Positions 7,200-61,200 of a stretch of DNA of 64,000 bases are shown in pieces. The notes under the pieces are model-generated. The model saw only the letters and a program-made list of their open reading frames with translations, had not been told where the DNA came from and did no database searches. The stretch comes from Persicaria tinctoria (Eukaryota; Streptophyta; Magnoliopsida; Caryophyllales; Polygonaceae), in NCBI GenBank assembly GCA_037127255.1, contig JBANSL010000001.1, forward strand, positions 34,215,001 through 34,279,000. Reading direction: 5' to 3'. Positions within the stretch are counted from its first letter, which is position 1. Each line of letters opens with the position of its first letter. The position numbers and the translations under genes are program-made.

Positions 7200-8899
7200 A
7201 AGTAAGGGAGCCATCAAAACCCTCCCGCTGTAGTGGTTGGGTATTCAGGATCGTATCCACGAGGAAGCGGGTATACGCTCGCCTTTTCAGCTCCTAAATT
7301 CTTCTCAAAATCAACTAGAAGGCTCCTCGGTGTCGAGTAGAGTACTCGATATCGACAAGACTTGTCAACTAAACCTGCAAAATCGTGCAACAGAGAGCAA
7401 AAACAAGCAGTGTCGAGTAGAAAGGGGTACTCGACGTCGACCAGACTCCTCGACGTCGACGAGAACTGGTCGAGATCGAGTAGTGCAGGACAAAAATCAT
7501 GACTTTGTGAACGGAATAAAAACGGAAATAATACGAAATTTGTGGGAATTCAATAATATAAAAGACTTCCAGAATCGAGGTATCAATGCCACAACGACAA
7601 CCATATAAGAATCATGCTAAAGGTATAAAAGATCATGTATTTTCATCAAATAACTTTCGTTATTAACAAATAAGAAGATAGAGGCTTTCACATAAGCCCT
7701 AATTGTTACTAACCATTTTCACATAATTAATCCAAGTTTGAATAAAGATCACTTTCGCTTCAATAACACAAACAAGAATCACCTTCAACTGTCGCAAAAG
7801 AATCATGCTCATAAGGATAGAAGACGAAATTGCATTAAAAGTTGTACCTTTGTCGCATTACCTTACATGGCTACCGTCGGGCTCACCCCGACCCTAGAAG
7901 TTGGGTGACTACTCGCTCTTCATCATAAAGAAACACATCAATAATAAAAGGGAACTAAATTGCATTGAATCAAAATAAAAACTTACAACCAATCGAAGCC
8001 AAAATCGCTCTCACAAATCTCTACCTCAATCAGCCAAAGCTCTCTAAATTCTCTCTACTCGCTATCAATTGTTATGTGTGTAAATTTGGAATTGAATAAA
8101 AATCAGCCCCTAGGGCCTTATTTATAGTATTAAATCCCCGCTATCCAAGGAAAGAATATTCTATCTATATATATTCCTATCTATCTAAAGCTTTATGATA
8201 AAACTTGGAAATAAAACAAATAAATCTCTAAGGTAAGTAAGACTAAAGTGGATAAACTTCTTCACTCTTGATAGATCTTCACATGACTTGATAGAATCCC
8301 ACGTGACTTCACTTGCAAGTAATCCACATATCTCGGACTCCACTCGATTTTAACTCGGAATGGCTCTGGGGAGTACTTGACATCGAGTAAAGTACTCGAC
8401 GTCGAGTAGGTTTCGTCTTCTCCTCGTGACATGCTCGAGCTCGGCTAGGATTGTGGACTCGACGGGTACTCGACGTCAACAAGAGTCCTCGACATCGAGT
8501 AGTCCTATGCTCCTCGAGTGGTTTTCTGCTCATCTGGTGCTCGACTAGTGAATTTCGACCATGAAGTCCTTGATATCGACCAGAGTGGTCGATATCGACT
8601 AGTCCTTTTCGAGTGCTCTTTCTCTTCTTTTCTGCTCGATGTGGTCTGGCTCAGCTGCTACTCGACCTTGGACTTTCTTTATTTGACCTCGAGCTTTTCC
8701 ATGATTTCCTTCTTTTCTCTGAATTGTTGTAAAATGCCTCGATTTCTGCGAAATTAAACAGAAACTAGTGTAGACTCCATAATTTGGAAAATAAGCATAA
8801 ACTACATAGATTATGTACTATTCTAACCCAATGATATGAAATGCATGCAGAAATCGCTATAAAAGTCAATGTAAAACATGGAAATTTAGACTCACAACA
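7200..8899 (-). mobile_element. Diverged LTR-like copy related to the Athila-like element at 22036-31217
   Basis: It shares ordered blocks with the 1867-bp LTRs further right: ATCCACGAGGAAGC, TAACTTTCGTTATTAACAAA, AGGCTTTC, TGTTACTAAC, CATAATTAATCCAAG and a right end CTCACAACA at 8891-8899. It also carries at least seven TCGANNTCGA sites. No internal domain flanks it, so it is probably a solo LTR or LTR fragment. The left end is uncertain and I could not match a 5-bp duplication. Strand is given by analogy with the intact copy. Confidence 0.6.
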
Positions 8900-13526: not shown

Positions 13527-14441
13527 GAAAAATACGCCGACCATACGAAGGGCCCCGTGGAAAAATACATACGATGTATACCTCTCAAAACACCACAAAA
13601 AATTGTACCCATGTCCCTCAATAACTATCTCCCCACCTAAAAACTACCCCGTCAAAAAATGTCCTGCACTCACATCCCCTGTACACCCAAACTCACATCT
13701 CCTACGGCTAACTCACTGCATTAGCCTCTTCACCCATAGTTTCTCCATCTTCGTTTTGCCCTTGCACTTGATGGATATTCTGTTACGACAAGCTTTGATA
13801 ATTTCGACAGCACACGCAGCCGGGTAGCACTGCTCACCCATGAATATCATATGGTTTCGCGCCCGCCAAGTAGTGTACACAAGGGCACACAAAGCCAGCA
13901 GCTTCCCTTGGAACATTGCCCCTTTTCTGGTTCCTTCCGGTTCCCTTTCGAACCATTGCAACCATTCACGAAGGGTGCTGTGTCGGATTCCTACCCCCAA
14001 CCAATCGAACACCCTGCTCTGAATTTCTCGGATCACTCTACAGTTGAACGAGAGATGATCTTCAGTTTCTTCTTCCTCCTTGCATAGCACACACCAAGCC
14101 GCATCTGGGCCTTTCCAGTGCTTAACCACACGTCCTGTCCGCAATCTCTGTCTAGCAGCTAACCACGTCACAAACGACCAGCGTTTGCACTGGGCTCGCT
14201 TCCAAATGAAGCTCCCCCATTCTACTTGCGCTCCATGGTCGCGTACCAGCTCATAAACCTTCCCACTTGCTAACCTTCCATCTGGATTGTGCAAATCCTC
14301 CCAATCGATAGCCCCCTGGGGCTGCATGAGGCCCTTGATTTCATCTCTCACATCCAGCAGAGCCTTCCATGCCCATGAATCATCGACTTTTGGGCCAACA
14401 TCCCACACCGAGTTACCCCTTAGCAGATTATGTTGCGCCCA
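13527..14441 (-). mobile_element. LINE fragment (zf-RVT plus 3' region) replacing 68 bp of LTR
   Basis: In the other LTR the matching interval is a 68-bp T-rich stretch (about 36779-36846). Here a 915-bp LINE-derived piece sits between AGTCCCTG and TCTCTCGATACC with no target duplication. In minus-strand sense it holds a zinc-binding domain, a stop and about 185 bp of downstream sequence. It looks like replacement or repair rather than ordinary insertion. Confidence 0.7.
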
Positions 14442-14552
14442 TCTCTCGATACCAACAGCGACCTTCAATCTTAACCAGGCAATTGAGCGGAGGAGGAGAG
14501 AGCACCGGTGAATCGCTCGGGCAAGGCAAAGGCGGAGGAGAAGGCGGTGCAA
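13713..14552 (-). pseudogene. LINE zinc-binding (zf-RVT) domain, copy 1
   Basis: A 279-codon frame whose first 35 or so residues come from the LTR. From about WAQHNLLRGNSVWDVG it is LINE sequence: ASGKVYELVRDHG, FIWKRAQCKRWSFVTWLAAR, WCVLCKEEEETEDHLSFNC (the C-x-x-C ... H-x(4)-C zinc cluster) and VYTTWRARNHMIF. This is the region between reverse transcriptase and the C-terminus of plant L1 proteins. The frame is intact across the fragment and ends with a normal stop. Confidence 0.85.
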
Positions 14553-14800: not shown

Positions 14801-16256
14801 CGAATTATTTCCTAATCAAAAAAATAAAAATATTAATGTGTATTACGGAGTACTTTTTTTCTTTGATGTAACTGGTGACTCAAGTGCAGATCGAAGCCCC
14901 GAATTCAAACAGGCCCAACAACAAATCGGGTCAAGCTTATAATTTGTTTGTCAACCCGAGTCTGAACTCTGAAGTCCCTGGAAAAATACGCCGACCATAC
15001 GAAGGGCCCCGTGGAAAAATACATACGATGTATACCTCTCAAAACACCACAAAAAATTGTACCCATGTCCCTCAATAACTATCTCCCCACCTAAAAACTA
15101 CCCCGTCAAAAAATGTCCTGCACTCACATCCCCTGTACACCCAAACTCACATCTCCTACGGCTAACTCACTGCATTAGCCTCTTCACCCATAGTTTCTCC
15201 ATCTTCGTTTTGCCCTTGCACTTGATGGATATTCTGTTACGACAAGCTTTGATAATTTCGACAGCACACGCAGCCGGGTAGCACTGCTCACCCATGAATA
15301 TCATATGGTTTCGCGCCCGCCAAGTAGTGTACACAAGGGCACACAAAGCCAGCAGCTTCCCTTGGAACATTGCCCCTTTTCTGGTTCCTTCCGGTTCCCT
15401 TTCGAACCATTGCAACCATTCACGAAGGGTGCTGTGTCGGATTCCTACCCCCAACCAATCGAACACCCTTCTCTGAATTTCTCGGATCACTCTACAGTTG
15501 AACGAGAGATGATCTTCAGTTTCTTCTTCCTCCTTGCATAGCACACACCAAGCCGCATCTGGGCCTTTCCAGTGCTTAACCACACGTCCTGTCCGCAATC
15601 TCTGTCTAGCAGCTAACCACGTCACAAACGACCAGCGTTTGCACTGGGCTCGCTTCCAAATGAAGCTCCCCCATTCTACTTGCGCTCCATGGTCGCGTAC
15701 CAGCTCATAAACCTTCCCACTTGCTAACCTTCCATCTGGATTGTGCAAATCCTCCCAATCGATAGCCCCCTGGGGCTGCATGAGGCCCTTGATTTCATCT
15801 CTCACATCCAGCAGAGCCTTCCATGCCCATGAATCATCGACTTTTGGGCCAACATCCCACACCGAGTTACCCCTTAGCAGATTATGTTGCGCCCATCTCT
15901 CGATACCAACAGCGACCTTCAATCTTAACCAGGCAATTGAGCGGAGGAGGAGAGAGCACCGGTGAATCGCTCGGGCAAGGCAAAGGCGGAGGAGAAGGCG
16001 GTGCAAGGACGGAAAGAGCGAGACTCTCCTCGGACCTTTCTAATCAGGTCCGCCCTATTTCCTTTTCCTCTTTCTTTTTGGTTTGCGAAATTCGCTCTCT
16101 AATTTGTTGTTCGGTCCGATTTTGAAGTGATTCTTGGTTTAGATTCCAGATTTTAAGAGGAATCCCCTTTCAATTTAGTGTTTGATTTTAACACTAGACT
16201 ACTTTTCCCCAAATTGTAATTTTAGGGTTTTTTTTTTTTAATTCCGATTTTCACCC
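14801..16256. repeat. Tandem duplication, copy 2
   Basis: Nearly identical to copy 1. By eye I see one base change (CCTGCTCTG to CCTTCTCTG near 15468) and a T-run two bases longer. Either a very recent duplication or an assembly artefact. Confidence 0.95.
15167..16006 (-). pseudogene. LINE zinc-binding (zf-RVT) domain, copy 2
   Basis: Duplicate of the frame at 13713-14552, differing in one residue (S to R in REIQ-RVFDW). The zinc cluster WCVLC ... DHLSFNC is kept. It arose by the 1454-bp tandem duplication, not a second insertion. Confidence 0.85.
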
Positions 16257-20959: not shown

Positions 20960-22035
20960 CAGGATAATTTAATTATGCCCCAACCATCGTTCGGCTGATG
21001 TAGTACAAGGCATTTTCCTTTCCTTCGTCATTATTTTGGGCTAGCATTGCCCTTAACGACCGCTCAAGACTTGCGGTGTACAAGACTAAGGGTTTTCCCT
21101 GAACTGGTGCCAGGAGGACTGGCGGGTCAGTCAAGTATTTCTTGATGCTGTCGAGAGCATTTTGACAAGCTTGGTCCCATATGAACGGAACATCTTTCTT
21201 CATCAACCTCAGAAAGGGTTGACACCTCCCCGTCAGATTTGAAATAAAACGCCGGATGTAGGCAAGTTTGCCCTGTAGACCTCGCAACTCACGGAGATTC
21301 CTCGGGGCTGGCATTTGCACGATTGCCTTGATTTTATCGGGGTCGATTTCTATGCCCCGTCCTCGAAAAATGAAGCCAAGAAACTTGCCTGAAGTTACAC
21401 CAAAGGCACATTTAAGGGGATTCATCTTCAATTGGTGTTTTCGCAACCTCTCGAAGATTCTCTTGAGATCATCCAAATGATCCTCTTTTTTTTTTTTTTT
21501 CACCACAAGGTCATCCACATAGCACTCAATGGTGTTGTGAAGCAGATCATGAAAGATCACTGTCATGGCTTTTTCAAACCAAAAGGCATTACTGTATAGC
21601 AATACGTGCCTAGAGGTGTCCGGAAAGCTGTTAATTCTTCGTCTTCGGGATGCATCTTAATCTGATTATACCCTGAGAAACCATCCATGAAGGATAAGGC
21701 TTGAAACCCCGTGGTGGAATCAACCAACAACTCAGTTATCGGAAGAGGGAATTCATCTTTGGGACATGCTTCATTTAAGTCCCGAAAATCCACACAAATA
21801 CGGAGCTGGCCATTCTTCTTCTTGACAGGAACAATGTTTGCCAACCAGATTGGGTATTGGACCTCACGAATGAATCCAGCCTCAATGAGCTTGATGACTT
21901 CGGCTTTAATCTGCACTGTCAGCTCGGGCCGAAAACGACGTTGAGCTTGCTTTACTGGCTTTTCCTCTTCGGAGACAGATAGCTTGTGCATAGCCACCTT
22001 AGGATCCAAACCAGGCATGTCTTGATATCCCCAAG
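20960..22035 (-). pseudogene. Tat reverse transcriptase and RNase H, N-terminus cut off by the nested insertion
   Basis: Reads GFIREVQYPIWLANIVPVKK, RICVDFRDLNEACPKD, FMDGFSGYNQI and MPFGLKK. A small deletion with frameshift near 21590 removes the usual block after GLK. The second frame has the catalytic CYVDD, a lysine run from a long A tract, CAFGVTSGKFLGF and the start of RNase H. An in-frame stop near 20973 separates it from the next frame. The protein begins in the piece at 31223-32213, where the reading stops at DVFAW; here it resumes at GYQDMPGLDP. Confidence 0.88.
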
Positions 22036-23902
22036 TGTTGTTGCAGGAGTTAGTCAAGTATAGAATAAGAATATGGATTAGAACGACTCCCCTGTTCCAG
22101 CAAATAATTACAAGACTTCCTCCCGTTGTAGTAGAAGGTTGTCAGGATCGATCCACGAGGAAGCACGTCAGCGGTTTCAGGTAGCAGTAGATCCCACAGA
22201 CAAGCAACAGAAGCAAAGACAGAAGCAAACAAAGCAAACGAAAGCAAGGAACAAAGCAACTCGACAAAAGCTAATCGACAACAGCAAAGTACTCGACCAG
22301 ACAACTCGACCAAGCTTTGTCGACACAGAAGTCCTCGATATCGAGAAGTACTCGACATAGAAGGCAAATCGACAAGATGTTCTCGACACAACAGCAGAAG
22401 TCGACAACAGCAAAAGGGAAGGAACTCGACTCCAACAATCTCCTCGACGTCGAGTAGATAACTCGATGTCGACAAGTTTCTCGAGGTCGATAAGAGTAGA
22501 AAATTAAATGCAAATGCTTTTCGAACACGGAACACGAATTTCGATGAAATAAATCAATAAACTAAAGACTTCCAAAGCTAGGGTTTCAACACCACAACAG
22601 TAACCATGCAAAGTAACACATAAAGGCATAAAAATCATGCTTTCCATCTAAATAACTTTCGTTATTAACAAATAGGAATATAGAGGCTTTCGCATAAACC
22701 CTAATTGTTACTAACCCTTTTCACATAATTAATCCAAGTTGCATTAAGATCACTTTCGCTTCAATAACACAAACAAGGATCACCTTCAACTCTCGCAAAA
22801 GAATCATGCTCATAGGGATAGAAGACAAATCGCATAAAAATCTGACCTTTATTGCATCGCCTCACATGGCCACCGTCGGGCTCACCCCAGCCCCAGAAGT
22901 GGGTGGACTACTCACGCCTCATCGCAATCGCAGACATTGATGTAAAAGAAGAAACTTGCATAAAACTAAATTCAAAGCCTTTACAATCTTGGCAATCAAC
23001 TTTCGCAAAAAGCCAAAACCCTAAAAACCTTAAACTCCTAAACTGTATCTCTGAATGGAACTAACTAATTGTGTGTAACTTGGAATCTAACTGAATTTGA
23101 ATGAATAAAACTGAGCCCCCTAGGGATTTATTTATAGGCTTCTAATCCTCGCTAATCAAGGATAGAAGATATCTATCTTTATCTAAAACTATATCTAAAA
23201 CTTAATGATAAATAAATAACATAGTGTAATTAAATAAAATAGATAGACTAGGATTATATCTAATGTGTGGACATCTTCTTTGGTCTTGATAGATCTTGAT
23301 AGAATTGGACGAATCTTAGCTTGCAAGTATCCAATCCCGCTCGGACTTCTCCTCGATCTCGGCTTCTGGACTCCTCGACATGTCTTCTCGATGTCGACAA
23401 CTTTCCTCGACATCGACAACATTTTGGTCTCGAGTTCAGTCAACTCGACTTCGTCTTCCAGTGCTCATGTCGAGTTTTGGAAACTTGTCGATGTCGACAA
23501 CTCTTGTCGACGTCGAGTTCTTTTCTCGGCTTCCAGCTCTGTTCGTAAAACGCACTTTCCCGCTGCCTCGGTTGTCGGATTGACGCATATGACCATGCGT
23601 TGGAAAGCTCTTTCCGAGGGCTACAACTCTCATGAAGACATCACAGCCTGGTTCAGAATGATGAAAGCCGGAAATTGGCCTTCTCTCCAGCTGCACCATT
23701 CTTGGCTTCTCCATAAGTTTCCTTTAAGCTCCAAAATGCGTCCGATTTCTGCGAAATATAACAAAAACTTGTGTAGACCTCCATATATTGCAAATAAGTG
23801 TAAACTACACATATTCTGTATCATTCAAGCCCAAATGCATGAAATGCATGCAGAAATCGATATAAAAGATAATGTAAAACATGGCTAATTAGGCTCACAA
23901 CA
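22036..23902 (-). repeat. 3' LTR of the Athila-like element
   Basis: 1867 bp, about 99.5% identical by eye to 29351-31217. Contains eight TCGANNTCGA sites (for example near 22335, 22444, 22463, 22481, 23388, 23407, 23488, 23507). Confidence 0.93.
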
Positions 23903-23916
23903 AACACCCCATACTT
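23903..23916 (-). other. Polypurine tract of the Athila-like element
   Basis: In element sense AAGTATGGGGTGTT lies directly before the 3' LTR, preceded by CTTGAGGACAAGCAAGCTT, a context typical of Athila-type elements. Confidence 0.75.
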
Positions 23917-24967
23917 AAGCTTGCTTGTCCTCAAGCAATACTTTTAATTGTCATTCAAGGGAAGAATTCAAACTCTCAACATCTTAGATTCATTGCCATA
24001 TGTCCCTGCAATCAATTACCATCTCTGAAAAGGTACTAGTGTCACCGATTCATGCATGTGCAAAATATATAAAAGCAACATCTACTCACAAAAGGAGGTT
24101 TATGCACAAACAATTTTTATGTGACAAAGCATTGATAATCAAGAAGACTTTAATTTAAGCTCATGAAGGAGTAGATTGGTAAAAGACAAAAAGGTGGGCA
24201 ATTTCTGGCAATGTGGTGCTTTTGATCCGGGGAAATGGAGTACTTTCCAAACTGAATTTCATACCACATTCTTTCTTCCATTTGATTCATCACCTTTCAT
24301 AATGCTTTTATCAATAATCATGCTTTTACCTCTCTGACCTCAGCACTGCCTTCTCGCGAGTCGCAAACATGGGTGTCATGAATGGCCCCGGATACTTAGT
24401 GCGTCGGACTCCTCACAATGTGTCCCATCTCTCCAAACTATTATCTCAGAGAGCAGGGTCAATCTACCTTTATCTCCTGAGGTGATTGGATTTTCTTTCA
24501 CTCATTAAATTTTCCATATATTTCAAATAATTTCCTTCCAAACTCCAAATATGATATTAATCACACAAACACCATATGACATCTCCATAATGTAACATCA
24601 TTCTCAACATAATCCCCGGATAAGGTAAAGAATGGAAATATTTAGATCATGTGGAGCAATATTCGAAATAAGGCATATTATGGCTTTTGTGATGCATAAG
24701 CATAGGTATGGCTAGGATTATAAACATATGAGCATTATATGGAAATATAAAGTCCTCCATCATCTTATCATGCAACATGTCAAAAGCAACTTCAAATTTT
24801 ACCTCCTTTCATGGTTTTCATCAAAATAATGCACTTCGTTGTGACTTCCCTTTACTAGGCAATTTCATGCTATATCTCTAATGAATCCAATTTTGCATCG
24901 TCGAGTTCAATTAAAGCTTCCATGACATTATTCAAAAAATTCAATGGGGGTCATTTTTCAAAACTTT
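23917..24967 (-). other. Non-coding 3' spacer of the Athila-like element
   Basis: No open frame or domain recognised. It lies between the tandem 500-bp repeat and the polypurine tract, where a complete relative would carry its pol 3' end and any extra frame. Confidence 0.5.
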
Positions 24968-25962
24968 TTAGAAAACATGCATATAAGCACATAAATCAAT
25001 AATGCATTCCAAAATAGCCATGTAGCAATTCTAAGAAATAATGCACATATATGTCAAATATGGAAAATATGCATAATGTAAGCCCTTCCCCCACCCCATA
25101 CTTAAACATTACAGTGTCCTCACTGTATAAAAAACAAGGGTAAAGAAAGAAACTCACAAGACAGGTGTGCGGATCGTCGGAAATCGAGTGAAAAAGTGTT
25201 GCAGTGCTTGTCGATCTCGACAACTCTAGTCGATCTCGAGAACTTGTCGATGTCGACAACTTCTCCTCGACATCGAGTTCTTCCTGTTGCCTCCAGGGTG
25301 ATCTTCTCGACCACAGGCTTACTCGATGTGGTTTTGTTGATGTCGAGTTCCTCCCCTCATGTCGACAAGACTGTAGCCATTCCTGCAAGATTCGATAGAC
25401 AAAAAATATCCACAATAGTATAACCCTAAAAAACAAACAAACAATGTCCAAAAAGTCCCAAAACGTTTTAGAAAACATGCATATAAGCACATAAATCAAT
25501 AATGCATTCCAAAATAGCCATGTAGCAATTCTAAGAAATAATGCACATATATGTCAAATATGGCAAATATGCATAATGTAAGCCCTTCCCCCACCCCATA
25601 CTTAAACATTACAGTGTCCTCACTGTATAAAAAACAAGGGTAAAGAAAGAAACTCACAAGACAGGTGTGCGGATCGTCGGAAATCGAGTGAAGAAGTGCT
25701 GCAGTGCTTGTCGATCTCGACAACTCTAGTCGATCTCGAGAACTTGTCGATGTTGACAACTTCTCCTCGACATCGAGTTCTTCCTGTTGCCTCCAGGGTG
25801 ATCTTCTCGACCACAGGCTTACTCGATGTGGTTTTGTTGATGTCGAGTTCCTCCCCTCATGTCGACAAGACTGTAGCCATTCCTGCAAGATTCGATAGAC
25901 CAAAAATATCCACAATAGTATAACCCTAAAAAACAAACAAACAATGTCCAAAAAGTCCCAAA
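24968..25962. repeat. Tandem pair of about 500-bp repeats in the Athila-like spacer
   Basis: Copy 1 is about 24968-25467 and copy 2 about 25468-25962, offset 500 bp, with only a few differences by eye. Each carries a cluster of TCGANNTCGA sites (four in copy 1, three intact in copy 2). Short frames on both strands here are artefacts. Confidence 0.92.
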
Positions 25963-26024
25963 ATAAAAAGTCTATTTACAAGCTCTAGATTTTATAGTCG
26001 CTAGGCCGACTTTCTCCATTAAGC

Positions 26025-29000
26025 TCAAGGTGGCATCTTCAGAGCCCATGTAGCCTGGGCTTCAAACAAGACTCCATTTTTATCCTTCAGCTGAATCCCT
26101 CCTGAATGGATCTTGTTCACCGTGAATGGTCCCATCTTCTTCTTATTGAATTTGTTAGGAAACCAATGATCCTTTGATTTAGAGACATAGACCATATCTC
26201 CTACTTTGTACTCCTTTGGATCGTCATCGGAAATCCTGCATAAGTGCACATACCAAGGCAAACCTCTCCCATGTATAGATAAATCTTTAATTGAAATAGA
26301 AGAAGACAGATTCATACCTTGGCTTACCTTCGCAGAATCGGAATCGGGAACCACTGGATCTTGTCGATCTCGAGTAACATTACTCGACATCAAGTTGCTT
26401 TCAGCTTCAGGTGGTGGACTGCTCGAAGACGGCGAAGTCGAGGAAACCCTAATCTTGTCGACATCGACAAGAGTTGTCGACGTCGAGGACTTCTCAACCT
26501 CCAGTGGATTTCTCGTCGAGGAAGGCAGTGTCGAGGAAGCATCAATCTTGTCGATATCGACAAGTGTTGTCGATGTCGAGTTGTTCTCTGGTTCCAGTGG
26601 CTTGCTCGACGACGCTGGTGGTGGTTTCTGATCTTTGTCGACGTTGACTAAACTACTCGATCTCGAGAAGTTTTTGTCGACTTCGACCCCATACTTAGCT
26701 CCTGTCAAGGCATCCGAAAAATAGTTAATCCAAATCGACTTACCTTGGTTTGCGTCGAGTGGATCTTCTGTTTCTTCCTTTAGGATGTCCATGATTTTCT
26801 CCACCTGTGCCTCTATATCTCTCTTTTCTATCTCCTTAGGGGTCATATTTCTGACCTTGGGTTCCCCGCAGGTGATATAGCCAGCTGAGATAGATTTGAC
26901 CTCTTCCTTTGGACCTGTATGCCTTTTAGTTTTATTGAAAGAATACTCTATTACCTCATCGCTGATGTTGAAGGTGAGCACTCCTTTCCGTACGCTTATG
27001 TTGGCATCCACAGTCGCCAAGAATGGTCTCCCTAGAATAATTGGACAAGCAGGATCTTCTTGCATATCAACAATTAAGAAATCAGCAGGGACGAAGAATT
27101 TACCTACTTGTACTGGTACATTTTCCACCATGCCTATTGGAATGACCACCGTGTTGTTGGCCATATAAAGTCTTGCATCCACAGGCTCCAGGGCACCTAT
27201 CTTAATCTTGGACCAAATTGTTAAAGGCATAATACTAACACTGGCTCCAAGATCACATAGGGCATTAATTTTGTATGGACCAAATCCAATAGTTATAGCA
27301 AACTTACCTGGATCCGGCCTCTTTTCCAATATGTCCAGATGGCTGCACTCCTCTGTGATTTCCGCCATCGATCGCTTTTTACTCAGAATCTCCTTTAGGA
27401 ACTTGACATAGGATGGCATTTCATTGAGAGCTTCTGTGAAGGGTATGGTGACATTGAGCTTCTGAAGCATCTTGATGAAGCGCTGAAACTTTTTCTCCGC
27501 TGGGTCCTTTAGAGATTTCGTGGGGAAAGGCAGCTTCTTTTTCTGACTCGGAGCCAGAACAGACATCGGAGGCGTTGCAGACTTCTCGACATCGATTTGA
27601 GACTTCTCGACATCGACAAGTTCCTCGACATCGACAACTTCCCTCGATGTGGAGTTGCTGTTCAGTGCAGAAGTTGGTCGATCAGGGTTGTCCTCGACAT
27701 CGAGAAGTTTTTTGTCGACATCGACAAGATTCTTGTCGACATCGAGTTGTTCTTCAGTGTTGTCCTGCTGCTTTCCGACCTCTGGCTCTTGCAGTTGATG
27801 CCCGCTCCTGAGTTTTACAACAGCTATGTGTCCAGTATTTCCCTTAGGATTTGGTTCTGTTTGCCCAGGGAGCTTGCCGGACTGTCGTGGGATCTGTGCA
27901 GAAATCTGTCCTATCTGAGTCTCAATTCCCCTTTTCCAGATGTCTAGCTCTCCAAATTTGGTGGTGATGTTCTGGAACTGGTTGTTGATGGTCCCTTGAT
28001 TTCGTCGCATCTCCTCAAGGACCAGCTGCAGATCATCCTTCCTTTGATCCCTTTCTGGATGTCCTGGAGCTCTGTAGGGTGGAGGATTCCTAGGGGGACC
28101 TTGGTTCCATTGCTGTTGATAAGGCCTTTGATCCCCCATATAGCGATTAGGCCCCCCTGCGTAAGCTGCATCCTCATGATGTTCTGCCATCCTGACTTGC
28201 TCTGTATGTGGGCACTCAGTAGTGGTGTGCCTCTGTGATCCGCATTCGATGCAAGGCTGGTTGACAGACAGATATTTGACTTGCTTGAGGAGCTTTTTAT
28301 TCTGGTCTCTATAGTATTGCTCCTTGACATCTGGGTCAATCTCCCTTGCTGGCTCATAGAGAGGCCTGGATGGGGCTGGCCTAGCATAGGTATTCTCCTC
28401 ATAGTTTGCAGGAGCCCCATACTTGTTGTCGTAATTGGTGAGCTTATCCAGGATACCCCATGCTTCAATTGGTGGTATTGTTAGGAACTCATATCGAGTA
28501 TAATTGTTGATTCTGTCCTTAGTGATTTGATCAAGAGAATTGAAGAAAATCTCCTGAACCACATAAGGTGGCTGTCCATGGGTGGGACAGGATTGCAGAA
28601 GTTCCTTGTAGCGCTCCCATGCCTTTGCCAGCGGTTCCCCAGGTTTCTGTCTGAAAGCTGTGATCTTTTGACGTAGGAGTGCTGTCTTGGCAGGAGGAAA
28701 GAATTTGTCGAGAAATTCCTGCTCTACTTGGGCCCATGTCGTGAGGCTTCGCGGTTTAAGCCCTACTAACCATTGCAATGCGGGGCCAGCGAGAGACCAT
28801 CGAAAAGCCTTCATCTTGATGTACTCCAGAGTGGTACCTTCAGCAAGTGTACGACACATGTCAGAAAAGTTTATAATATGCTCAAGAGGACACTCATTAA
28901 AATTCCCATGAAAAGCATTATTTTTAAGTTCAATTAGAAATTGAGTGCGAATTTCATAGGAGTTTTCAGGGATAAGAATGGCCGATTCAGGCACGACGAG

Positions 29001-29267
29001 AGTGGGATGCATGTAATCCTCTGCAGTAAGAGGACACTGGGCGAGCACGCCTTCTACTTGTCTAGCACGCTCATTTGCTTGTTCTTTTTCTGCCCTCTCA
29101 GCAGCGAGGGCAGCATCTCTGGCGGCTAGATCCCTTGTGAGCCTAGCGATCAGCTGTTCCTGTGTTTCAGCAGCTGACATGATTCTTTTGAGTTTGGAGT
29201 GGATGTGTAGGTAGCGCTCCCGTTCGTCTAAGCTGTCAAACTCAGGTGTTTGATCAGAACGACGCAT
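26025..29267 (-). CDS. Athila-like Gag-protease polyprotein with integrase-tail-like end
   Basis: Intact 1080-codon frame, starting at the first Met after the priming site. Residues about 1-75 are coiled-coil-like. About 110-285 is the Athila-type Gag domain (WAQVEQEFLDKFFPPAKTA, FRQKPGEPLAKAWERYKEL). About 335-350 is a zinc knuckle CIECGSQRHTTTEC. About 640-760 is an aspartic protease (INALCDLGASVSIMPLTIW, IILGRPFLAT). The end (YKVGDMVYVSKS, KMGPFTVNKIHSGGIQLKD) looks like the C-terminal tail of an integrase, so pol seems deleted between protease and integrase tail without losing the frame. Two acidic low-complexity stretches repeat VDVDK-like units encoded by TCGANNTCGA. Gag would form the particle; the missing enzymes would come in trans. 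Confidence 0.88.
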   Translation of the reverse strand: MRRSDQTPEFDSLDERERYLHIHSKLKRIMSAAETQEQLIARLTRDLAARDAALAAERAEKEQANERARQVEGVLAQCPLTAEDYMHPTLVVPESAILIPENSYEIRTQFLIELKNNAFHGNFNECPLEHIINFSDMCRTLAEGTTLEYIKMKAFRWSLAGPALQWLVGLKPRSLTTWAQVEQEFLDKFFPPAKTALLRQKITAFRQKPGEPLAKAWERYKELLQSCPTHGQPPYVVQEIFFNSLDQITKDRINNYTRYEFLTIPPIEAWGILDKLTNYDNKYGAPANYEENTYARPAPSRPLYEPAREIDPDVKEQYYRDQNKKLLKQVKYLSVNQPCIECGSQRHTTTECPHTEQVRMAEHHEDAAYAGGPNRYMGDQRPYQQQWNQGPPRNPPPYRAPGHPERDQRKDDLQLVLEEMRRNQGTINNQFQNITTKFGELDIWKRGIETQIGQISAQIPRQSGKLPGQTEPNPKGNTGHIAVVKLRSGHQLQEPEVGKQQDNTEEQLDVDKNLVDVDKKLLDVEDNPDRPTSALNSNSTSREVVDVEELVDVEKSQIDVEKSATPPMSVLAPSQKKKLPFPTKSLKDPAEKKFQRFIKMLQKLNVTIPFTEALNEMPSYVKFLKEILSKKRSMAEITEECSHLDILEKRPDPGKFAITIGFGPYKINALCDLGASVSIMPLTIWSKIKIGALEPVDARLYMANNTVVIPIGMVENVPVQVGKFFVPADFLIVDMQEDPACPIILGRPFLATVDANISVRKGVLTFNISDEVIEYSFNKTKRHTGPKEEVKSISAGYITCGEPKVRNMTPKEIEKRDIEAQVEKIMDILKEETEDPLDANQGKSIWINYFSDALTGAKYGVEVDKNFSRSSSLVNVDKDQKPPPASSSKPLEPENNSTSTTLVDIDKIDASSTLPSSTRNPLEVEKSSTSTTLVDVDKIRVSSTSPSSSSPPPEAESNLMSSNVTRDRQDPVVPDSDSAKVSQGMNLSSSISIKDLSIHGRGLPWYVHLCRISDDDPKEYKVGDMVYVSKSKDHWFPNKFNKKKMGPFTVNKIHSGGIQLKDKNGVLFEAQATWALKMPP

Positions 29268-29329
29268 ACACCTGCAATCTAACTCAAAGAAACAGTGAGA
29301 ACTAACTACCTAAGGCGCGATTGATAGCT

Positions 29330-29347
29330 TCCCCGGCAACGGCGCCA
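29330..29347 (-). other. Primer-binding site, tRNA-Asp type
   Basis: In element sense TGGCGCCGTTGCCGGGGA, three bases after the 5' LTR end. It is complementary to the 3' end of plant tRNA-Asp and is the usual Athila priming site. Confidence 0.9.
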
Positions 29348-29350
29348 ATT

Positions 29351-31217
29351 TGTTGTTGCAAGAGTTAGTCAAGTATAGAATAAGAATATGGATTAGAACG
29401 ACTCCCCTGTTCCAGCAAATAATTACAAGACTTCCTCCCGTTGTAGTAGAAGGTTGTCAGGATCGATCCACGAGGAAGCACGTCAGCGGTTTCAGGTAGC
29501 AGTAGATCCCACAGACAAGCAACAGAAGCAAAGACAGAAGCAAACAAAGCAAACGAAAGCAAGGAACAAAGCAACTCGACAAAAGCTAATCGACAACAGC
29601 AAAGTACTCGACCAGACAACTCGACCAAGCTTTGTCGACACAGAAGTCCTCGATATCGAGAAGTACTCGACACAGAAGGCAAATCGACAAGATGTTCTCG
29701 ACACAACAGCAGAAGTCGACAACAGCAAAAGGGAAGGAACTCGACTCCAACAATCTCCTCGACGTCGAGTAGATAACTCGATATCGACAAGTTTCTCGAG
29801 GTCGATAAGAGCAGAAAATTAAATGCAAATGCTTTTCGAACACGGAACACGAATTTCGATGAAATAAATCAATAAACTAAAGACTTCCAAAGCTAGGGTT
29901 TCAACACCACAACAGTAACCATGCAAAGTAACACATAAAGGCATAAAAATCATGCTTTCCATCTAAATAACTTTCGTTATTAACAAATAGGAATATAGAG
30001 GCTTTCGCATAAACCCTAATTGTTACTAACCCTTTTCACATAATTAATCCAAGTTGCATTAAGATCACTTTCGCTTCAATAACACAAACAAGGATCACCT
30101 TCAACTCTCGCAAAAGAATCATGCTCATAGGGATAGAAGACAAATCGCATAAAAATCTGACCTTTATTGCATCGCCTCACATGGCCACCGTCGGGCTCAC
30201 CCCAGCCCCAGAAGTGGGTGGACTACTCACGCCTCATCGCAATCGCAGAAATTGATGTAAAAGAAGAAACTTGCATAAAACTAAATTCAAAGCCTTTACA
30301 ATCTTGGCAATCAACTTTCGCAAAAAGCCAAAACCCTAAAAACCTTAAACTCCTAAACTGTATCTCTGAATGGAACTAACTAATTGTGTGTAACTTGGAA
30401 TCTAACTGAATTTGAATGAATAAAACTGAGCCCCCTAGGGCTTTATTTATAGGCTTCTAATCCTCGCTAATCAAGGATAGAAGATATCTATCTTTATCTA
30501 AAACTATATCTAAAACTTAATGATAAATAAATAACATAGTGTAATTAAATAAAATAGATAGACTAGGATTATATCTAATGTGTGGACATCTTCTTTGGTC
30601 TTGATAGATCTTGATAGAATTGGACGAATCTTAGCTTGCAAGTATCCAATCCCGCTCGGACTTCTCCTCGATCTCGGCTTCTGGACTCCTCGACATGTCT
30701 TCTCGATGTCGACAACTTTCCTCGACATCGACAACATTTTGGTCTCGAGTTCAGTCAACTCGACTTCGTCTTCCAGTGCTCATGTCGAGTTTTGGAAACT
30801 TGTCGATGTCGACAACTCTTGTCGACGTCGAGTTCTTTTCTCGGCTTCCAGCTCTGTTCGTAAAACGCACTTTCCCGCTGCCTCGGTTGTCGGATTGACG
30901 CATATGACCATGCGTTGGAAAGCTCTTTCCGAGGGCTACAACTCTCATGAAGACATCACAGCCTGATTCAGAATGATGAAAGCCGGAAATTGGCCTTCTC
31001 TCCAGCTGCACCATTCTTGGCTTCTCCATAAGTTTCCTTTAAGCTCCAAAATGCGTCCGATTTCTGCGAAATATAACAAAAACTTGTATAGACCTCCATA
31101 TATTGCAAATAAGTGTAAACTACACATATTCTGTATCATTCAAGCCCAAATGCATGAAATGCATGCAGAAATCGATATAAAAGATAATGTAAAACATGGT
31201 TAATTAGGCTCACAACA
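29351..31217 (-). repeat. 5' LTR of the Athila-like element
   Basis: 1867 bp, same length as 22036-23902. Differences seen by eye include single changes near 29361, 29672, 29782 and 29811. Confidence 0.93.
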
Positions 31218-31222
31218 CCAAG

Positions 31223-55200: not shown

Positions 55201-58200
55201 TTGAGGACAACCAAGGGAATTCCAAAGAGCTCCTTGTCCAAAACCTTTTCACTTGACTTTGGCAGAGTTAACAGGCAGATATAGTGCCTTTACAAGATAT
55301 ATTCCAAAAGCAGAACTCATTCTAGAGGCTAGTCCTCTTATTTACAGTGGTAGTACGCCAATACTCCCTGAGGCACACACTATGACAACAGTAAAACTAG
55401 TTACTCCACATCCAAGTGACTGTGCTTCTCCATCTCAACCTTGAGCCTACCAGATTATAGTAATATCCCTTCCTCTCCATGTCCATGACATATACATACT
55501 GTTAGCATGCTTACATTAATTAGTTGGTTGCTACAGGCTTTTAATGTTAAATACATTAATTAGATTTTACAGCTGTGTAAAGCTGTTTACTTTTTCTGAT
55601 GCATTTATTCTTTGCATCTTCCTAGTTTGTTCTCTTTATATTCTGTACCTTTCTTAGGAATACAAAGAACTGATTCTCCTCTTCTCCATCTCTCTCTTTA
55701 CTCTCTCATTTCCTAACATGGTATCAGAGCTTAAGGTGTTCTCCTAAGCTTATTTTTATGATTTACTTCAGCCTTCATTGCTGAAACTTTCTGGTTTCTC
55801 CAGCCTTCATTGCTGAGAACCTTTTTCCTGTTTTCTCAGCCTTCATTGCTGAAAAATTTCTTCTAGTTTCAGCATTCATTGCTGAAATTACTCTCTTTTC
55901 ATTCTCAGCCTTCATTGCCAAAGAAATTTAACCTTTAAAGGATGACAATCCTCACAATTGAAGATTCTTCAAATGCCAACTGGAATGCAAATACTGGGGG
56001 CACAAGTGTTGCTGATTTTGAAGGCCAATCTGCAAGTGCTCCATTCACTCTTGCTTTATCAGGTAATATCTCACATTTTTTACACTCTAGAGCTTCTGAG
56101 GAGTCTCGACCCACACAATGGATCATAGACTCAGGTGCCACAAACCATATGGCCAATTCCTCACAACGGTTTCAAACTTACCGGTCAAACCCTAAAAACA
56201 TGAGAGTCTGTACGGCTAATGGGTCTTTTACTCCTGTTGTTGGCCAAGGAACCATACGTCTCTCAGCTACACTTGTCCTTAAAAATGTGCTTTATGTCCC
56301 TGAATTGTCTATAAATCTCATCTCCACTCAAAAGCTTACAGCAGACCTTAATTGTCATGTTATTTTCACACCCTCTTGTTGTATTTTAGAGGACCAAGAT
56401 TCAGGAAAGAGGATTGTGATTGCTAAGGTGAAGAATGGTCTCTATCACCTTGAATTGCCTCGGGACAGTCCCCACATCCAAGCTTTGTCCACCACCACAA
56501 ATGCTGGCTCCATTTGGCTTTACCATTATCGCCTTGGTCATCCTTCTTTTTATATGTTAAAACATTTGTATCCAAATATGTTCCAAGGAATTGATGTTTC
56601 ACAGCTTCATTGTGAAGTTTGTGAGTTAGCCAAGCATACCCGTGTCTCATTTCCAATAAGTGCTAAGAGGAGTGTTTCTCCTTTTCAACTTATTCATAGT
56701 GACATTTGGGGACCTTCTCCTCTATCCAGTGTCTCCGGTGCCCGCTGGTTTGTTACACTCATTGATGATTGTACTCGTACAATGTGGGTATTCCTCCTCA
56801 AAAACAAGTCTGATGTCAGCCATATTATTCCCACCTTCCACACCATGGTTCAAAACCAATTTGGCACCAAAATCCAAAGGATTCGAACCGATAATGCTAA
56901 GGACTATTTTAATCAGACCTTGACATCTTTCTTTCAATCCCAAGGTATTATCCATGAATCCTCTTGTGTTTATACACCTCAACAAAATGGTCTTGCCGAG
57001 AGGAAAAATAGACACATTTTAGAGGTAACCCGTGCCCTTCTTTTTACCAACAATGTTCCCAAATTCTATTGGGGTGAAGCTGTCCTCACTGCAGCTCGTC
57101 TTATTAATAGGCTTCCTTCTAAGGTTCTTCAATGTAAAAGCCCTCTTGAGTGTCTTCGAGAATTCTATCCCCAACTGGAGATCATTCTCTGATCTTGAAC
57201 CGAAAATTTTTGGGTGCACTACATATGTCCATGTTCACAATTCTCAAAGAGGGAAGTTAGACCCAAAAGCTATCAAATGCATCTTCCTTGGCTATTCTGC
57301 CACTCAAAAGGGATACAAGTGTTATAACCCTCTTACCAAAAAGATGTACATCTCCATTGATGTAACATTTTCAGAAAAGTCACCATTTTATTCTCAAACC
57401 AAGGCTCCAGATCAAGAGCAACTACCCTTTGTTCCAGAAAAGACTTTCCCAAACTTAGACTTGGATCTCGAAATTTCTCCAAATAAACTTGCCCCTACTC
57501 CTCCACTTGAACCTAGTGCACCTTATCCAAGCTATCCTTATGTTTATTCAAGGAGGGTAGAGACCGATCTGATCCAACAAGTTCAAACATCTCCTGAATC
57601 TGAACCCGGTAACACTACTTCCCAAGGCATGGAACCTGAGCCTAATGTCATTCCCTCTAACCCTACATCTTCTGAACCTATTACTTGTGAATCCAATGAC
57701 TCTCCTAGTTCAGATAATGATGTACCCATTGCCATCAGGAAAGGCATTCGTGAGTGCACAAAAAGGCCTTTGTATCCATTATCCAACCATGTGTCCTTGA
57801 ACCGTTTCTCTGCATCCCACCAAAAGTTCATTCAAAACCTTCACAACATTTCTACACCTAAGAACCTTTCAGAAGCTCTAAAGAAAAAAGAGTGGAGAGA
57901 AGCCATGAAAGCAGAGATGATCGCTCTAGAGAAAAATAATACATGGGAAATTGTTGACAAGCCAGCGGGGAAGAATGTTGTTGATTGCAGGTGGATCTTT
58001 GCTCTTAAATACAACGCAGATGGGTCATTAGAGAGGTACAAGGCCCGCCTTGTAGGTAAAGGCTACACTCAAACATATGGAATTGATTACCAGGACACCT
58101 TTGCACCCGTTGCGAAAATGAATACAGTGAGGATACTGTTGTCATTGGCAGCTCACTTTAATTGGCCTCTCCTCCAGTATGATGTGAAGAATGCTTTCCT

Positions 58201-61200
58201 TCATGGAACTTTGGATGAAGAAATCTACATGAGGGTGCCACCACGCTTTACTTCTCTTTCTTCTAACAAAGTATGTCGACTAAAAAAGGCTCTTTATGGG
58301 CTTAAACAGTCACCAAGGGCTTGGTTTGGGCGGTTTACAGCAGTGATGAAGGGCGCTGGTTATAAGCAAAGCCAAGGGGATCACACTTTGTTTGTCAAAC
58401 ATTCAGCTTCAGGGGGAGTGACCATTTTATTAGTCTACGTTGATGATATCATTGTCACCGGTGACAATGAGCTGGAAAAGGAGCAGTTGAAGAAAAAGTT
58501 AGAAGCTGAATTTGAGATCAAAGCTCTTGGTAAGCTCAAGTACTTCCTTGGTATTGAGGTAGCTCACTCTTCTAATGGGATTTTTATCTCTCAACAGAAG
58601 TATATCACAGATTTGTTGAAAGAGACAGGTAAAAGTGGTTGTAAACCAGCTTCTACTCCCATTGATCCAAATCACAAACTTGGGCACTTCAAAGATGACC
58701 CACAAGTGGATAAAGCAATGTATCAACGATTGTGTGGGAAATTGATCTATTTATCTCATACTAGGCCGGACATTGCTTATCCCGTTTCTGTCATAAGTCA
58801 GTTTATGCATGACCCGAGACAATCTCATCTTAGTGCAGCCTATCGCATACTTCACTACTTGAAAGGGTGTCCAGGTAAAGGTATACTCTTCAAAAGAGGA
58901 AACAAGTTGACCATAGAAGCTTTCACAGATGCGGACTATGCTGGTTCCATTGTTGATAGAAGATCTACCTCTGGATATTGCATGTTTCTTGGAGGAAATC
59001 TTGTTACATGGAGAAGTAAAAAACAGAATGTTGTGGCCAGATCTTCTGCTGAAGCTGAATTCAGAGCTCTAGCACATGGCTTATGTGAGATGTTGTGGTT
59101 AAGAATCATTTTGGCTGATCTAAAGATAAAATGGGAGGGACCTATGGTTCTAAATTGTGACAACAAATCTGCTATTAGCATTGCTCATAACCCTGTCCAA
59201 CATGATAGGACCAAACATGTGGAGATTGATAGACACTTCATCAAAGAAAAACTGGAGGAAGGAGTGGCCCGAATTGCCTTTGTCAAGTCAGAAGATCAGC
59301 TTGCGGATTTGCTCACTAAAGGATTCCATTGTTCCAGATTTGAAAAGTTAACTTCCAAGCTTGGATTGGTCGACCTCTACCATCCAACTTGAGGGGGAGT
59401 GTTAGCATGCTTACATTAATTAGTTGGTTGCTACAGGCTTTTAATGTTAAATACATTAATTAGATTTTACAGCTGTGTAAAGCTGTTTACTTTTTCTGAT
59501 GCATTTATTCTTTGCATCTTCCTAGTTTGTTCTCTTTATATTCTGTACCTTTCTTAGGAATACAAAGAACTGATTCTCCTCTTCTCCATCTCTCTCTTTA
59601 CTCTCTCATTTCCTAACACATACACTGATAGACAAACTATGCACATAGCAGGGAAATTGTATATAATGAGTCTATATAAGGTGTCATCAATGATAGAGAA
59701 TGATGAAGTGTTAATCTATTGTTGGGAAAAAGCCTCCCTTTATAATTACAGAAGAAGACTCTTTAAGTGACTCCTGTAATCACTAACTACACCTAGGAAC
59801 TCACATATTAAATGTCCCAGGGAATAAACTACATCAGCTAATAATTGTAGAAGTATTAATTTAATCTAGGGACTTTATCTAACAGCTGTATTAGCATTTA
59901 TATTAGCTAACAATCGGTATCATGGGATCAAATGTTGAAAAGATGCCCATTAGATTGGAGACAAGGGGAAAAAAAAAAGAGAAAGCAATTTGACCTGTAT
60001 GAGCTTTGAAGCATGGACGCATTAGACCCTCGCCAGTCACAACCTCATACATTGGATGGGACATCTGAAAGAACTCTGGTTTCCTGGCAGAGACTATCAC
60101 CTGGAAGACAATATTCATTCCCAGAAAACATTTTCAAATAAGCAAACATTACATTGCTATTACTAAGAGGCTGGTGCCATATTTATACTAATAATTCTCC
60201 CCGCTTCTAGCTTATCCTAGAAGCTTTTATCCTAACTGCTCATGTTTGTATCATTTTCCATGAAGTTTTTACAAGGTGGTTTCACGATCATCAATTGATG
60301 TCAAGGATCCCCATCGAAGAAGTTGGTCAAGAAGGTTTTCAAGCAGCGAATCAAGAAAAAAACATCAATGTCTTAAGCCCATAGACGAATCGAGTAATTT
60401 GACTTGAAACAAGGTACAAGAGATAACTCGTGGCTGAACAAGATGTAAGATATGTGGTTTTGCTACTACTGTGTATTTCCTATGGGATCAAGAAAGAGTC
60501 AAGAGGTAATGCATGGCTGAACAAGATGAAGAGATGTGGTTTTGCTACTGCTGTGTATTTCCTAAAGAATGCTAGAAATAACACACTTTTGTAGAACAAT
60601 GATCCACGTATTGATGATATTATGTGTATGATTAAGATGCACGAGCACAAGGTAATTGTTAGACCTCTGAATTATTATGTGGAATTGGGCTAGGCATTCA
60701 AAGGAAGGGGCAGTGTCATGAGAGTGGGCAGTTAGAGGAATTTGCTAGTGTCACATGGCTGTTAGGAGTTGTTAGTCACAACCCATATTAGTGTACATAA
60801 GGAGTAGTCCTCTACGTTTATATCAAGCAGTGGTGATTAAGTATCTTTACTAGTTGAGCAAGGCTCTCTAGTGGCCAATTTGGGATATCCCAACTGGTGG
60901 TTACCCTCTCAGATCCCTGAGACTTTGTCCTGGTATGTTCTTGTTTTCCCTTTGTGAGGTAATGAAATATATTGTCTCGTATCAACCTATGTATCTTAAA
61001 CTACATGACGCTCACTTAAGATCCTTTTGGTTTGACAGATTGCAGTCAATGGATTGACCATGGCCACTTCTGTATATGCCCTATACACAGGTTTTTCCTA
61101 CATAGATTTTAATCATTTATGATAGCTTTTTCCAGTTGAAATTTTCTTTTCACAAAAAAACATAAATTTTAGTTCAAAAATAGAAGTCTTTCTAGGCTTA

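What the first reader, a model, noticed from the sequence alone, without database searches (positions are those of the whole stretch)
22036..31217. TCGANNTCGA repeated about 36 times across LTR, coding and spacer of one retrotransposon
Seen: the pattern TCGA-two bases-TCGA occurs about 8 times in each LTR, 13 times in the gag-pro frame (near 26365, 26457-26670, 27590-27760) and 7 times in the tandem spacer repeats. The middle pair varies (AT, AC, CA, TG, CG, CT, GG). Eight fixed bases would be expected about 0.14 times in 9.2 kb. Inside gag-pro the same DNA encodes VDVDK/VDIDK-like runs, so DNA-level spread seems to have shaped the protein. Each site has two CpGs, which should decay if methylated, so retention hints at selection. 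Inference: binding sites for an element- or host-encoded factor, perhaps analogous to the short motifs bound by the anti-silencing VANC proteins of VANDAL transposons, or cooperative dimer sites for a transcription factor.
Basis: partly seen in the sequence, partly recalled or inferred. Interest (0 to 1): 0.86.

Follow-up and report, generated by a model that had tools for sequence, protein, structure and literature searches.

The report
Paired TCGA sites in plant retrotransposons
A plant retrotransposon and its relatives carry dense arrays of one paired, palindromic DNA motif that look like selected binding sites for a protein, with a middle 'code' that differs between related families, which suggests a protein and its sites that evolve together.

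Summary
In detail: TCGANNTCGA occurs 36 times in the element, against about 0.1 in shuffles of one LTR plus internal part, which hold 28. The host genome has 617,165 copies (reversed control 43,496) and 222,217 close pairs (control 72). The site is really TNSTCGANNTCGASNA, often in pairs 19-21 bp apart. Its flanks mirror each other and mostly vary independently, which fits a dimer on double-stranded DNA better than an RNA hairpin. Over 30 LTRs the core is 99.2% conserved, the middle pair 85.9%, sequence within 60 bp 90.6%. Related families keep many sites at the same positions but prefer different middle pairs: YR, RR/YY or TA; in gag this gives V-against-I differences. Autonomous relatives with related LTRs carry an extra ~420-aa ORF, a candidate binder. 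I read the array as binding sites for a co-evolving, probably element-encoded dimer that activates or un-silences the LTR. Site selection is well supported by sequence; the protein and its effect are inferred. Closest known: Sirevirus LTR palindromes and the VANC/VANDAL system.

The parts
22031..22035 (.). target-site duplication CCAAG (left copy)
31218..31222 (.). target-site duplication CCAAG (right copy)
22036..23902 (-). 3' LTR, 1867 bp, 8 sites at 22335, 22444, 22463, 22481, 23388, 23407, 23488, 23507; 9 differences from the 5' LTR
29351..31217 (-). 5' LTR, 8 sites at 29650, 29759, 29778, 29796, 30703, 30722, 30803, 30822
30703..30831 (.). site cluster 1 of the 5' LTR (sense positions 387-515), 250-380 bp upstream of the TATA-like sequence
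30444..30451 (-). only TATA[AT]A match in the sense LTR (position 767, TATAAATA)
   Evidence: promoter role inferred
29650..29805 (.). site cluster 2 of the 5' LTR (sense 1413-1568), about 650-800 bp downstream of the TATA-like sequence
29331..29347 (-). primer-binding-site-like TGGCGCCGTTGCCGGGG just inside the 5' LTR
   Evidence: sequence; tRNA-Asp match recalled, not tested
23903..23916 (-). polypurine-tract-like stretch beside the 3' LTR
   Evidence: sequence
26025..29267 (-). gag-pro ORF, 1080 aa; Pfam finds Retrotrans_gag only; protease and the integrase-C-terminus-like end (26028-26204) seen by eye
27586..27745 (-). linker 1 of gag-pro, 6 sites read as LDVDK/VDVDK/VDVE-like
26364..26686 (-). 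linker 2 of gag-pro, 7 sites read in three frames (VEVD/VDID/VDVD, STS/SRS, RDR)
24959..25963 (.). two 500-bp tandem repeats in the spacer, 4 + 3 sites; the eighth place reads TCGATGTTGA, one C-to-T difference in a CpG
7346..8899 (.). related, diverged LTR (blocks 75% and 82% identical), 7 sites

Best explanation
The repeats are an array of double-stranded DNA binding sites. Each TNSTCGANNTCGASNA site is bound by a dimer, one subunit per TNSTCGA half-site; two sites 19-21 bp apart (about two helical turns) form a composite unit. The array lies upstream of the LTR TATA-like sequence, further down the LTR, in the spacer and in two variable linkers of gag-pro, and it is kept by selection because binding lets the element be expressed (activation or anti-silencing). 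Related families differ in the middle dinucleotide at many positions in concert, so the factor is most likely supplied by the element lineage and co-evolves with the sites. The candidate is the ~420-aa ORF between integrase and 3' LTR of autonomous relatives; the gag-pro element in the window would use such a factor in trans. Shown by sequence statistics: a selected, paired motif with family-specific centres. Inferred: dimer binding, identity of the factor, anti-silencing. My step estimates: DNA-binding array 0.88; lineage-encoded co-evolving factor 0.5; this ORF 0.35; anti-silencing rather than plain activation 0.4.
For: Enrichment, exact gap, three reading frames. Genome-wide 617,165 sites against 43,496, and 222,217 pairs with a 9-11-base linker against 72, for the reversed patterns. 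T at -3 in 82% and C/G at -1 in 91% of half-sites of 172 thinned sites; left and right pair no more often than independent half-sites at +-1 (71 against 73.5) and +-3 (124 against 119.3); mirror-symmetric flanks over 130 oriented sites. In 30 LTRs core 99.2%, +-3 96.6%, middle pair 85.9%, within 60 bp 90.6%. Consecutive sites peak at 19 bp in family A (15 of 34 distances up to 45 bp) and lie at 20-21 bp in B (17 of 18) and C (9 of 12). YY..RR pairs 48,099 against RR..YY 8,661. Whole-locus tallies: A TA 6, other YR 41, RR/YY 15; B RR/YY 38, YR 2, RY 1; C TA 30, other YR 2, RR/YY 4. At the 9 LTR columns shared by A and B the majority is YR in 8 of 9 (A) against 0 of 9 (B); at the 8 shared by B and C, 0 of 8 against 8 of 8. 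Three intact gag-linker sites read CA in the window element and TA in L047. 22 of the 40 best L052-LTR matches flank one of the 100 scored ORF loci, in 15 elements, 7 of them on both sides; chance about 0.0005 per LTR for 100 ORFs and 0.012 for all 2233 candidates.
Against: No binding, methylation or expression data. The ORF has no informative domain: PF03078 ATHILA ORF-1 is below its cut-off (14.6 against 20.2 bits) and no PDB or NCBIfam match was found. Only one ORF-bearing element, L052, was read as DNA, and only part of its LTR: 5 sites. 18 of the 40 LTR matches have no scored ORF nearby. The bait with the window element's C-terminal domain matched L052 only in its integrase part (query 2-89), so L052 is not its direct parent. 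The family codes rest on nine loci plus one partial LTR, not chosen at random. Family A keeps 15 of 62 RR/YY sites; L048 has CC at column 721, L003 has CG at 2051, L047 has AA at 2188. One decayed L047 gag site keeps CA (TCAACATCGA) and one reads AA. A and C do not differ in YR class at their 5 shared columns, only in TA against CA/TG/CG. Flank complementarity exceeds expectation at +-2 (63 against 46.3, sd 5.8) and +-5 (58 against 45.5, sd 5.8).
Confidence: 0.5

Rival explanations
1. The sites are an enhancer array for a host transcription factor or chromatin protein that binds TNSTCGANNTCGASNA as a dimer; the element only exploits it.
For: Cluster 1 lies 250-380 bp upstream of the only TATA[AT]A match; all data for a selected dimer site apply equally.
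Against: Related families in one nucleus prefer different middle pairs at the same positions, which a single host factor would not require. Sites in gag linkers and spacer lie far from the promoter.
Confidence: 0.3
2. RNA- or ssDNA-level signal, such as packaging or dimerisation hairpins with an ANNT loop.
For: The core is self-complementary; excess of complementary flanks at +-2 and +-5. A review of earlier work ties small RNAs in Sirevirus LTRs to predicted secondary structure of palindromic clusters (PMC10760457, passages).
Against: The constrained flank positions +-1 and +-3 pair no more than independent half-sites and the flanks are mirror-symmetric. LTR cluster 1 lies upstream of the TATA-like sequence.
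Confidence: 0.06
3. Neutral spread: microduplication, slippage or gene conversion multiplied a founder site, and families differ because each copied its own version.
For: Some copies are block duplicates; tandem arrays of the element exist.
Against: Flanks differ between sites; the core is conserved against a faster-changing middle pair and neighbourhood; homologous positions in diverged families keep the site but differ in the middle pair.
Confidence: 0.09
4. Protein-level selection for VDVD-like linkers in gag-pro created the motif.
For: 9 of 13 coding sites share one reading frame, encoding V/L/I-D/E-V/I-D/E.
Against: 16 LTR and 7 spacer sites are outside gag-pro; three frames are used; synonymous shuffles reach at most 7 of 13.
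Confidence: 0.02

Closest known systems
Sirevirus (Ty1/copia) repeated motifs, RM boxes (PMC2829016; passages and section 9 read)
   Same: Palindromic, CpG-containing motif in 8 to 32 copies per element, clustered in the LTR upstream of the TATA box, extra copies in the internal region of elements with ENV, sequence differing between elements.
   Different: Ty1/copia rather than Ty3/gypsy type; 12 of the 13 share a CGG-CCG core. What I read does not mention pairs at two helical turns or copies in gag-pro linkers (a few copies lie at the start of ENV).
VANC/VANDAL anti-silencing system of Arabidopsis (PMC5735166, PMC10398659; passages read)
   Same: Short motifs repeated along an element; related families carry different versions; proposed co-evolution of protein and sites.
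   Different: VANDALs are DNA transposons; the VANC21 motif YAGTATTAY is not palindromic and is described in non-coding regions; there a protein with shown binding and demethylation exists, none is shown here.
Athila-type Ty3/gypsy elements with an additional ORF between pol and 3' LTR (PMC7264820, passages)
   Same: L052 and its kin have pol, then a ~420-aa ORF, then an LTR related to the window's LTR.
   Different: The window element keeps only gag-pro plus a short integrase-like C-terminal domain; the passages I read report no motif array.

Membership tests
Sirevirus RM boxes | many copies of a palindromic motif clustered in the LTR upstream of a TATA box | tested here: met
   cluster 1; cluster 2 lies downstream
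Sirevirus RM boxes | CGG-CCG core | tested here: not met
   core is TCGANNTCGA
Sirevirus RM boxes | host element is a Ty1/copia Sirevirus | tested here: not met
   Retrotrans_gag in the window element; integrase of the relative L052 resembles that of the gypsy-type protein P0004; no RT tree made
VANC/VANDAL system | element is a VANDAL Mutator-like DNA transposon | tested here: not met
   LTRs, 5-bp duplication, gag
VANC/VANDAL system | short repeated motif whose version differs between related families | tested here: met
VANC/VANDAL system | motif confined to non-coding regions | tested here: not met
   13 of 36 sites are in gag-pro
VANC/VANDAL system | element-encoded protein that binds the motif | not testable with these tools
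   candidate ORF only
VANC/VANDAL system | loss of DNA methylation at cognate copies | not testable with these tools
   no methylation data
Athila lineage | reverse-transcriptase phylogeny places it in Athila | not tested
   label rests on recalled features and a sub-threshold PF03078 match in L052
Athila lineage | additional ORF between integrase and 3' LTR in autonomous relatives | tested here: met
non-autonomous gag-bearing LTR element (TR-GAG type; definition recalled) | LTRs, target-site duplication and gag ORF but no RT | tested here: met
   (Pfam on gag-pro and on the longer other ORFs of the element; no RT match)

The most novel reading that the evidence does not exclude
LTR retrotransposons have their own VANC-like system: a ~420-aa ORF of autonomous Athila-like elements binds paired TCGANNTCGA sites as a dimer of dimers and opens silenced LTRs. 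At least three cis-codes (YR, RR/YY, TA) in one genome mark separate co-evolving families, with gag-pro-only elements as dependants whose gag protein sequence is bent to carry the sites.
Probability: 0.28. Interest if true: 0.92.

Novelty: new variant of a known kind. Interest (0 to 1): 0.76.

Why it matters
A 2026 paper leaves open whether Tork and Athila elements encode ORFs whose proteins modulate their own epigenetic state, after citing VANC as an example (PMC12844716, passages). This genome would allow a direct test: hundreds of thousands of sites, at least three family preferences, uninterrupted copies of a candidate ORF, and decayed sites as natural controls. It also shows a DNA motif selected inside protein-coding linkers, with repeated V/I differences that follow the DNA centre. 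For the closest described case, Sirevirus LTR palindromes, the section I read names no proven binder.

Tried and rejected
PF20167 (Transposase_32) as the binder: 150 scored of 3697 candidates; the one hit read (L050) has no site in 9 kb and sits beside a copia-type RNase H by eye. A second integrase locus, L051, has no site in 6.4 kb and a 270-aa open frame downstream that I did not compare. For L050 and L051 I did not establish whether an LTR lies in the stretch, so neither is a clean negative control. Homology of the ~420-aa ORF to PF20167 proteins: hhalign probability 0.2%, inconclusive with two-row profiles; one search failed on wrong coordinates. Relatives elsewhere: the gag search gave 8 proteins, the best by E-value 38% identical over 89%, with no VDVD run by eye; IMG/VR gave no relative of gag-pro and no match to one form of the pair, flanks included and linker exactly 10; the ORF has one relative in the protein database. 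Papers: a whole-word search for five of the 10-mers gave one mosquito paper (it would miss them inside longer strings); other searches are. Never answered: a gag search in the own genome and the count of single TCGATATCGA (79, 83, 86, 90, 93), so the TA-TA pair count (37,669) has no expected value. The first EL-L047 comparison printed no alignment and was redone. My first hand coding of shared columns and first ORF list (43 of 100, partly picked by contig) were replaced by full recounts; the ORF result stayed the same.
Full report
What is there. The element at 22036-31217 (minus strand) is an LTR retrotransposon with two 1867-bp LTRs that differ at 9 positions, a CCAAG duplication on both sides, a primer-binding-site-like sequence and a 1080-aa gag-pro ORF. 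Pfam finds Retrotrans_gag in that ORF and no RT there or in the longer other ORFs of the element. By eye it is inserted in another retrotransposon whose pol frames continue on both sides. The ORF ends in a short domain that resembles an integrase C-terminus: of 150 scored matches to a bait joining an integrase stretch to this domain, 7 align through both parts (query end 124-137 of 147) and the rest stop by residue 94. I call the lineage Athila-like from recalled features and a sub-threshold PF03078 match in a relative; no RT tree was made.

The count. One LTR plus the internal part has 28 sites against a shuffle mean of 0.114 (maximum 2 of 1000); all have a gap of exactly two bases, gaps 0, 1 and 3-6 have none. 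In the host genome TCGANNTCGA occurs 617,165 times against 43,496 for the pattern read backwards, GTCGAYRTCGAC 49,385 against 387, and pairs with a 9-11-base linker 222,217 against 72; the reversed pattern has no CpG, so it is a rough control. With boundaries set by hand, sites are absent from the gag core, protease and C-terminal domain and lie in two linkers (6 and 7), the spacer (7) and the LTRs (8 each).

What the motif is. In 172 thinned sites the flanks are constrained too: T at -3 (82%), C or G at -1 (91%). On the sense strand left and right flanks mirror each other (130 sites). The two sides vary independently at the constrained positions (71 complementary against 73.5 expected at +-1; 124 against 119.3 at +-3) but show an excess at +-2 (63 against 46.3) and +-5 (58 against 45.5). 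This fits two protein half-sites better than a hairpin. Neighbouring sites often lie 19-21 bp apart. Genome-wide, YY..RR pairs are 5.6 times as common as RR..YY pairs (48,099 against 8,661), so such pairs have a preferred geometry.

Selection. In 30 LTR copies (the window's two and the 28 best other matches with loci) core bases match the majority in 99.2% of cells, the +-3 base in 96.6%, the middle pair in 85.9%, the +-1 base in 86.1%, all positions outside in 94.6% and those within 60 bp in 90.6%. CpG is kept in 519 of 535 cells inside sites, 462 of 521 in lone TCGA and 924 of 1064 elsewhere. The Fisher p for inside against outside is 4e-12, too small because copies are related. In gag-pro the sites use three frames and exceed every one of 2000 synonymous shuffles.

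Families with different codes. Related LTRs, with blocks roughly 70-88% identical, keep many sites at the same aligned positions but with other middle pairs. Tallies: family A (window element, L048, the window's second LTR) TA 6, other YR 41, RR/YY 15; family B (L003, L046, L049) RR/YY 38, YR 2, RY 1; family C (L047, L002, L005) TA 30, other YR 2, RR/YY 4. Of 24 alignment columns with a site, 9 are shared by A and B: majority YR in 8 of 9 in A and 0 of 9 in B. Eight are shared by B and C: 0 of 8 against 8 of 8. Five are shared by A and C, where both are YR and only TA against CA/TG/CG differs (L027b counted in B). Exceptions are CC in L048 at column 721, CG in L003 at 2051, TG in L046 at 2031 and AA in L047 at 2188. 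In the gag linker three homologous sites intact in both read CA in the window element and TA in L047, V against I in the protein; a decayed L047 site also reads TA, another keeps CA, and one place reads AA. The loci were first on contig 1 or beside fetched LTRs, and the first fifteen were found by a YR pattern, so the sample is not random.

Who binds. The window element encodes only gag-pro. A search for integrase neighbours led to L052: the end of a pol frame reported as 2170 aa, a 464-aa open frame (420 aa from its first ATG), and the start of an LTR related to the window's LTR with 5 sites. The ORF has 2233 candidate loci, of which 100 were scored; their main matches are 71-100% identical. 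Of the 40 best matches to the L052 LTR (11210 candidates), 22 flank a scored ORF: 12 at 1.7-2.4 kb on the 3' side and 10 on the 5' side, nine at 9.5-11.1 kb and one at 6.0 kb, in 15 elements of which 7 show both sides; 18 have no scored ORF near. The ORF has no informative domain match, so its role as binder is inference.

Mechanism and known systems. Cluster 1 lies 250-380 bp upstream of the only TATA[AT]A match of the LTR, where an activator could sit; arrays along the internal part resemble VANDAL elements, where VANC proteins bind short repeated motifs and methylation is lost (PMC5735166, passages). Sirevirus LTRs have comparable palindromic boxes upstream of their TATA box (PMC2829016). 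The present case differs by lineage, core, pairing, coding sites and family codes. I therefore rate it a new variant of a known kind.

Noticed in passing
window 26028-26204 and own genome: The last 59 aa of gag-pro (integrase-C-terminus-like) are 98-100% identical in the 150 scored of 9879 candidate loci, although the DNA of two compared elements is about 85% identical; this suggests constraint on a domain kept without RT or integrase core.
   Followed up: partly
G000 C1:1796392-1821483 (L006-L015, L048): Copies of the element form a head-to-tail array with a period near 6670 bp.
   Followed up: no
window 13713-14552 and 15167-16006: Two nearly identical 279-aa ORFs 1454 bp apart on the minus strand, apparently a local duplication.
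   Followed up: no
L050:1082-2821: A 580-aa open frame with PF20167 (Transposase_32) lies downstream of a copia-type RNase H-like frame (by eye); 3697 candidate PF20167 loci in the genome.
   Followed up: partly
window 16787 and 37735: TCGATTTCGA in nearly identical contexts on either side of the outer element, possibly its two LTRs.
   Followed up: no
window 55942-59392: Ty1/copia-like frames (by eye and by names of protein hits), no TCGANNTCGA.
   Followed up: no
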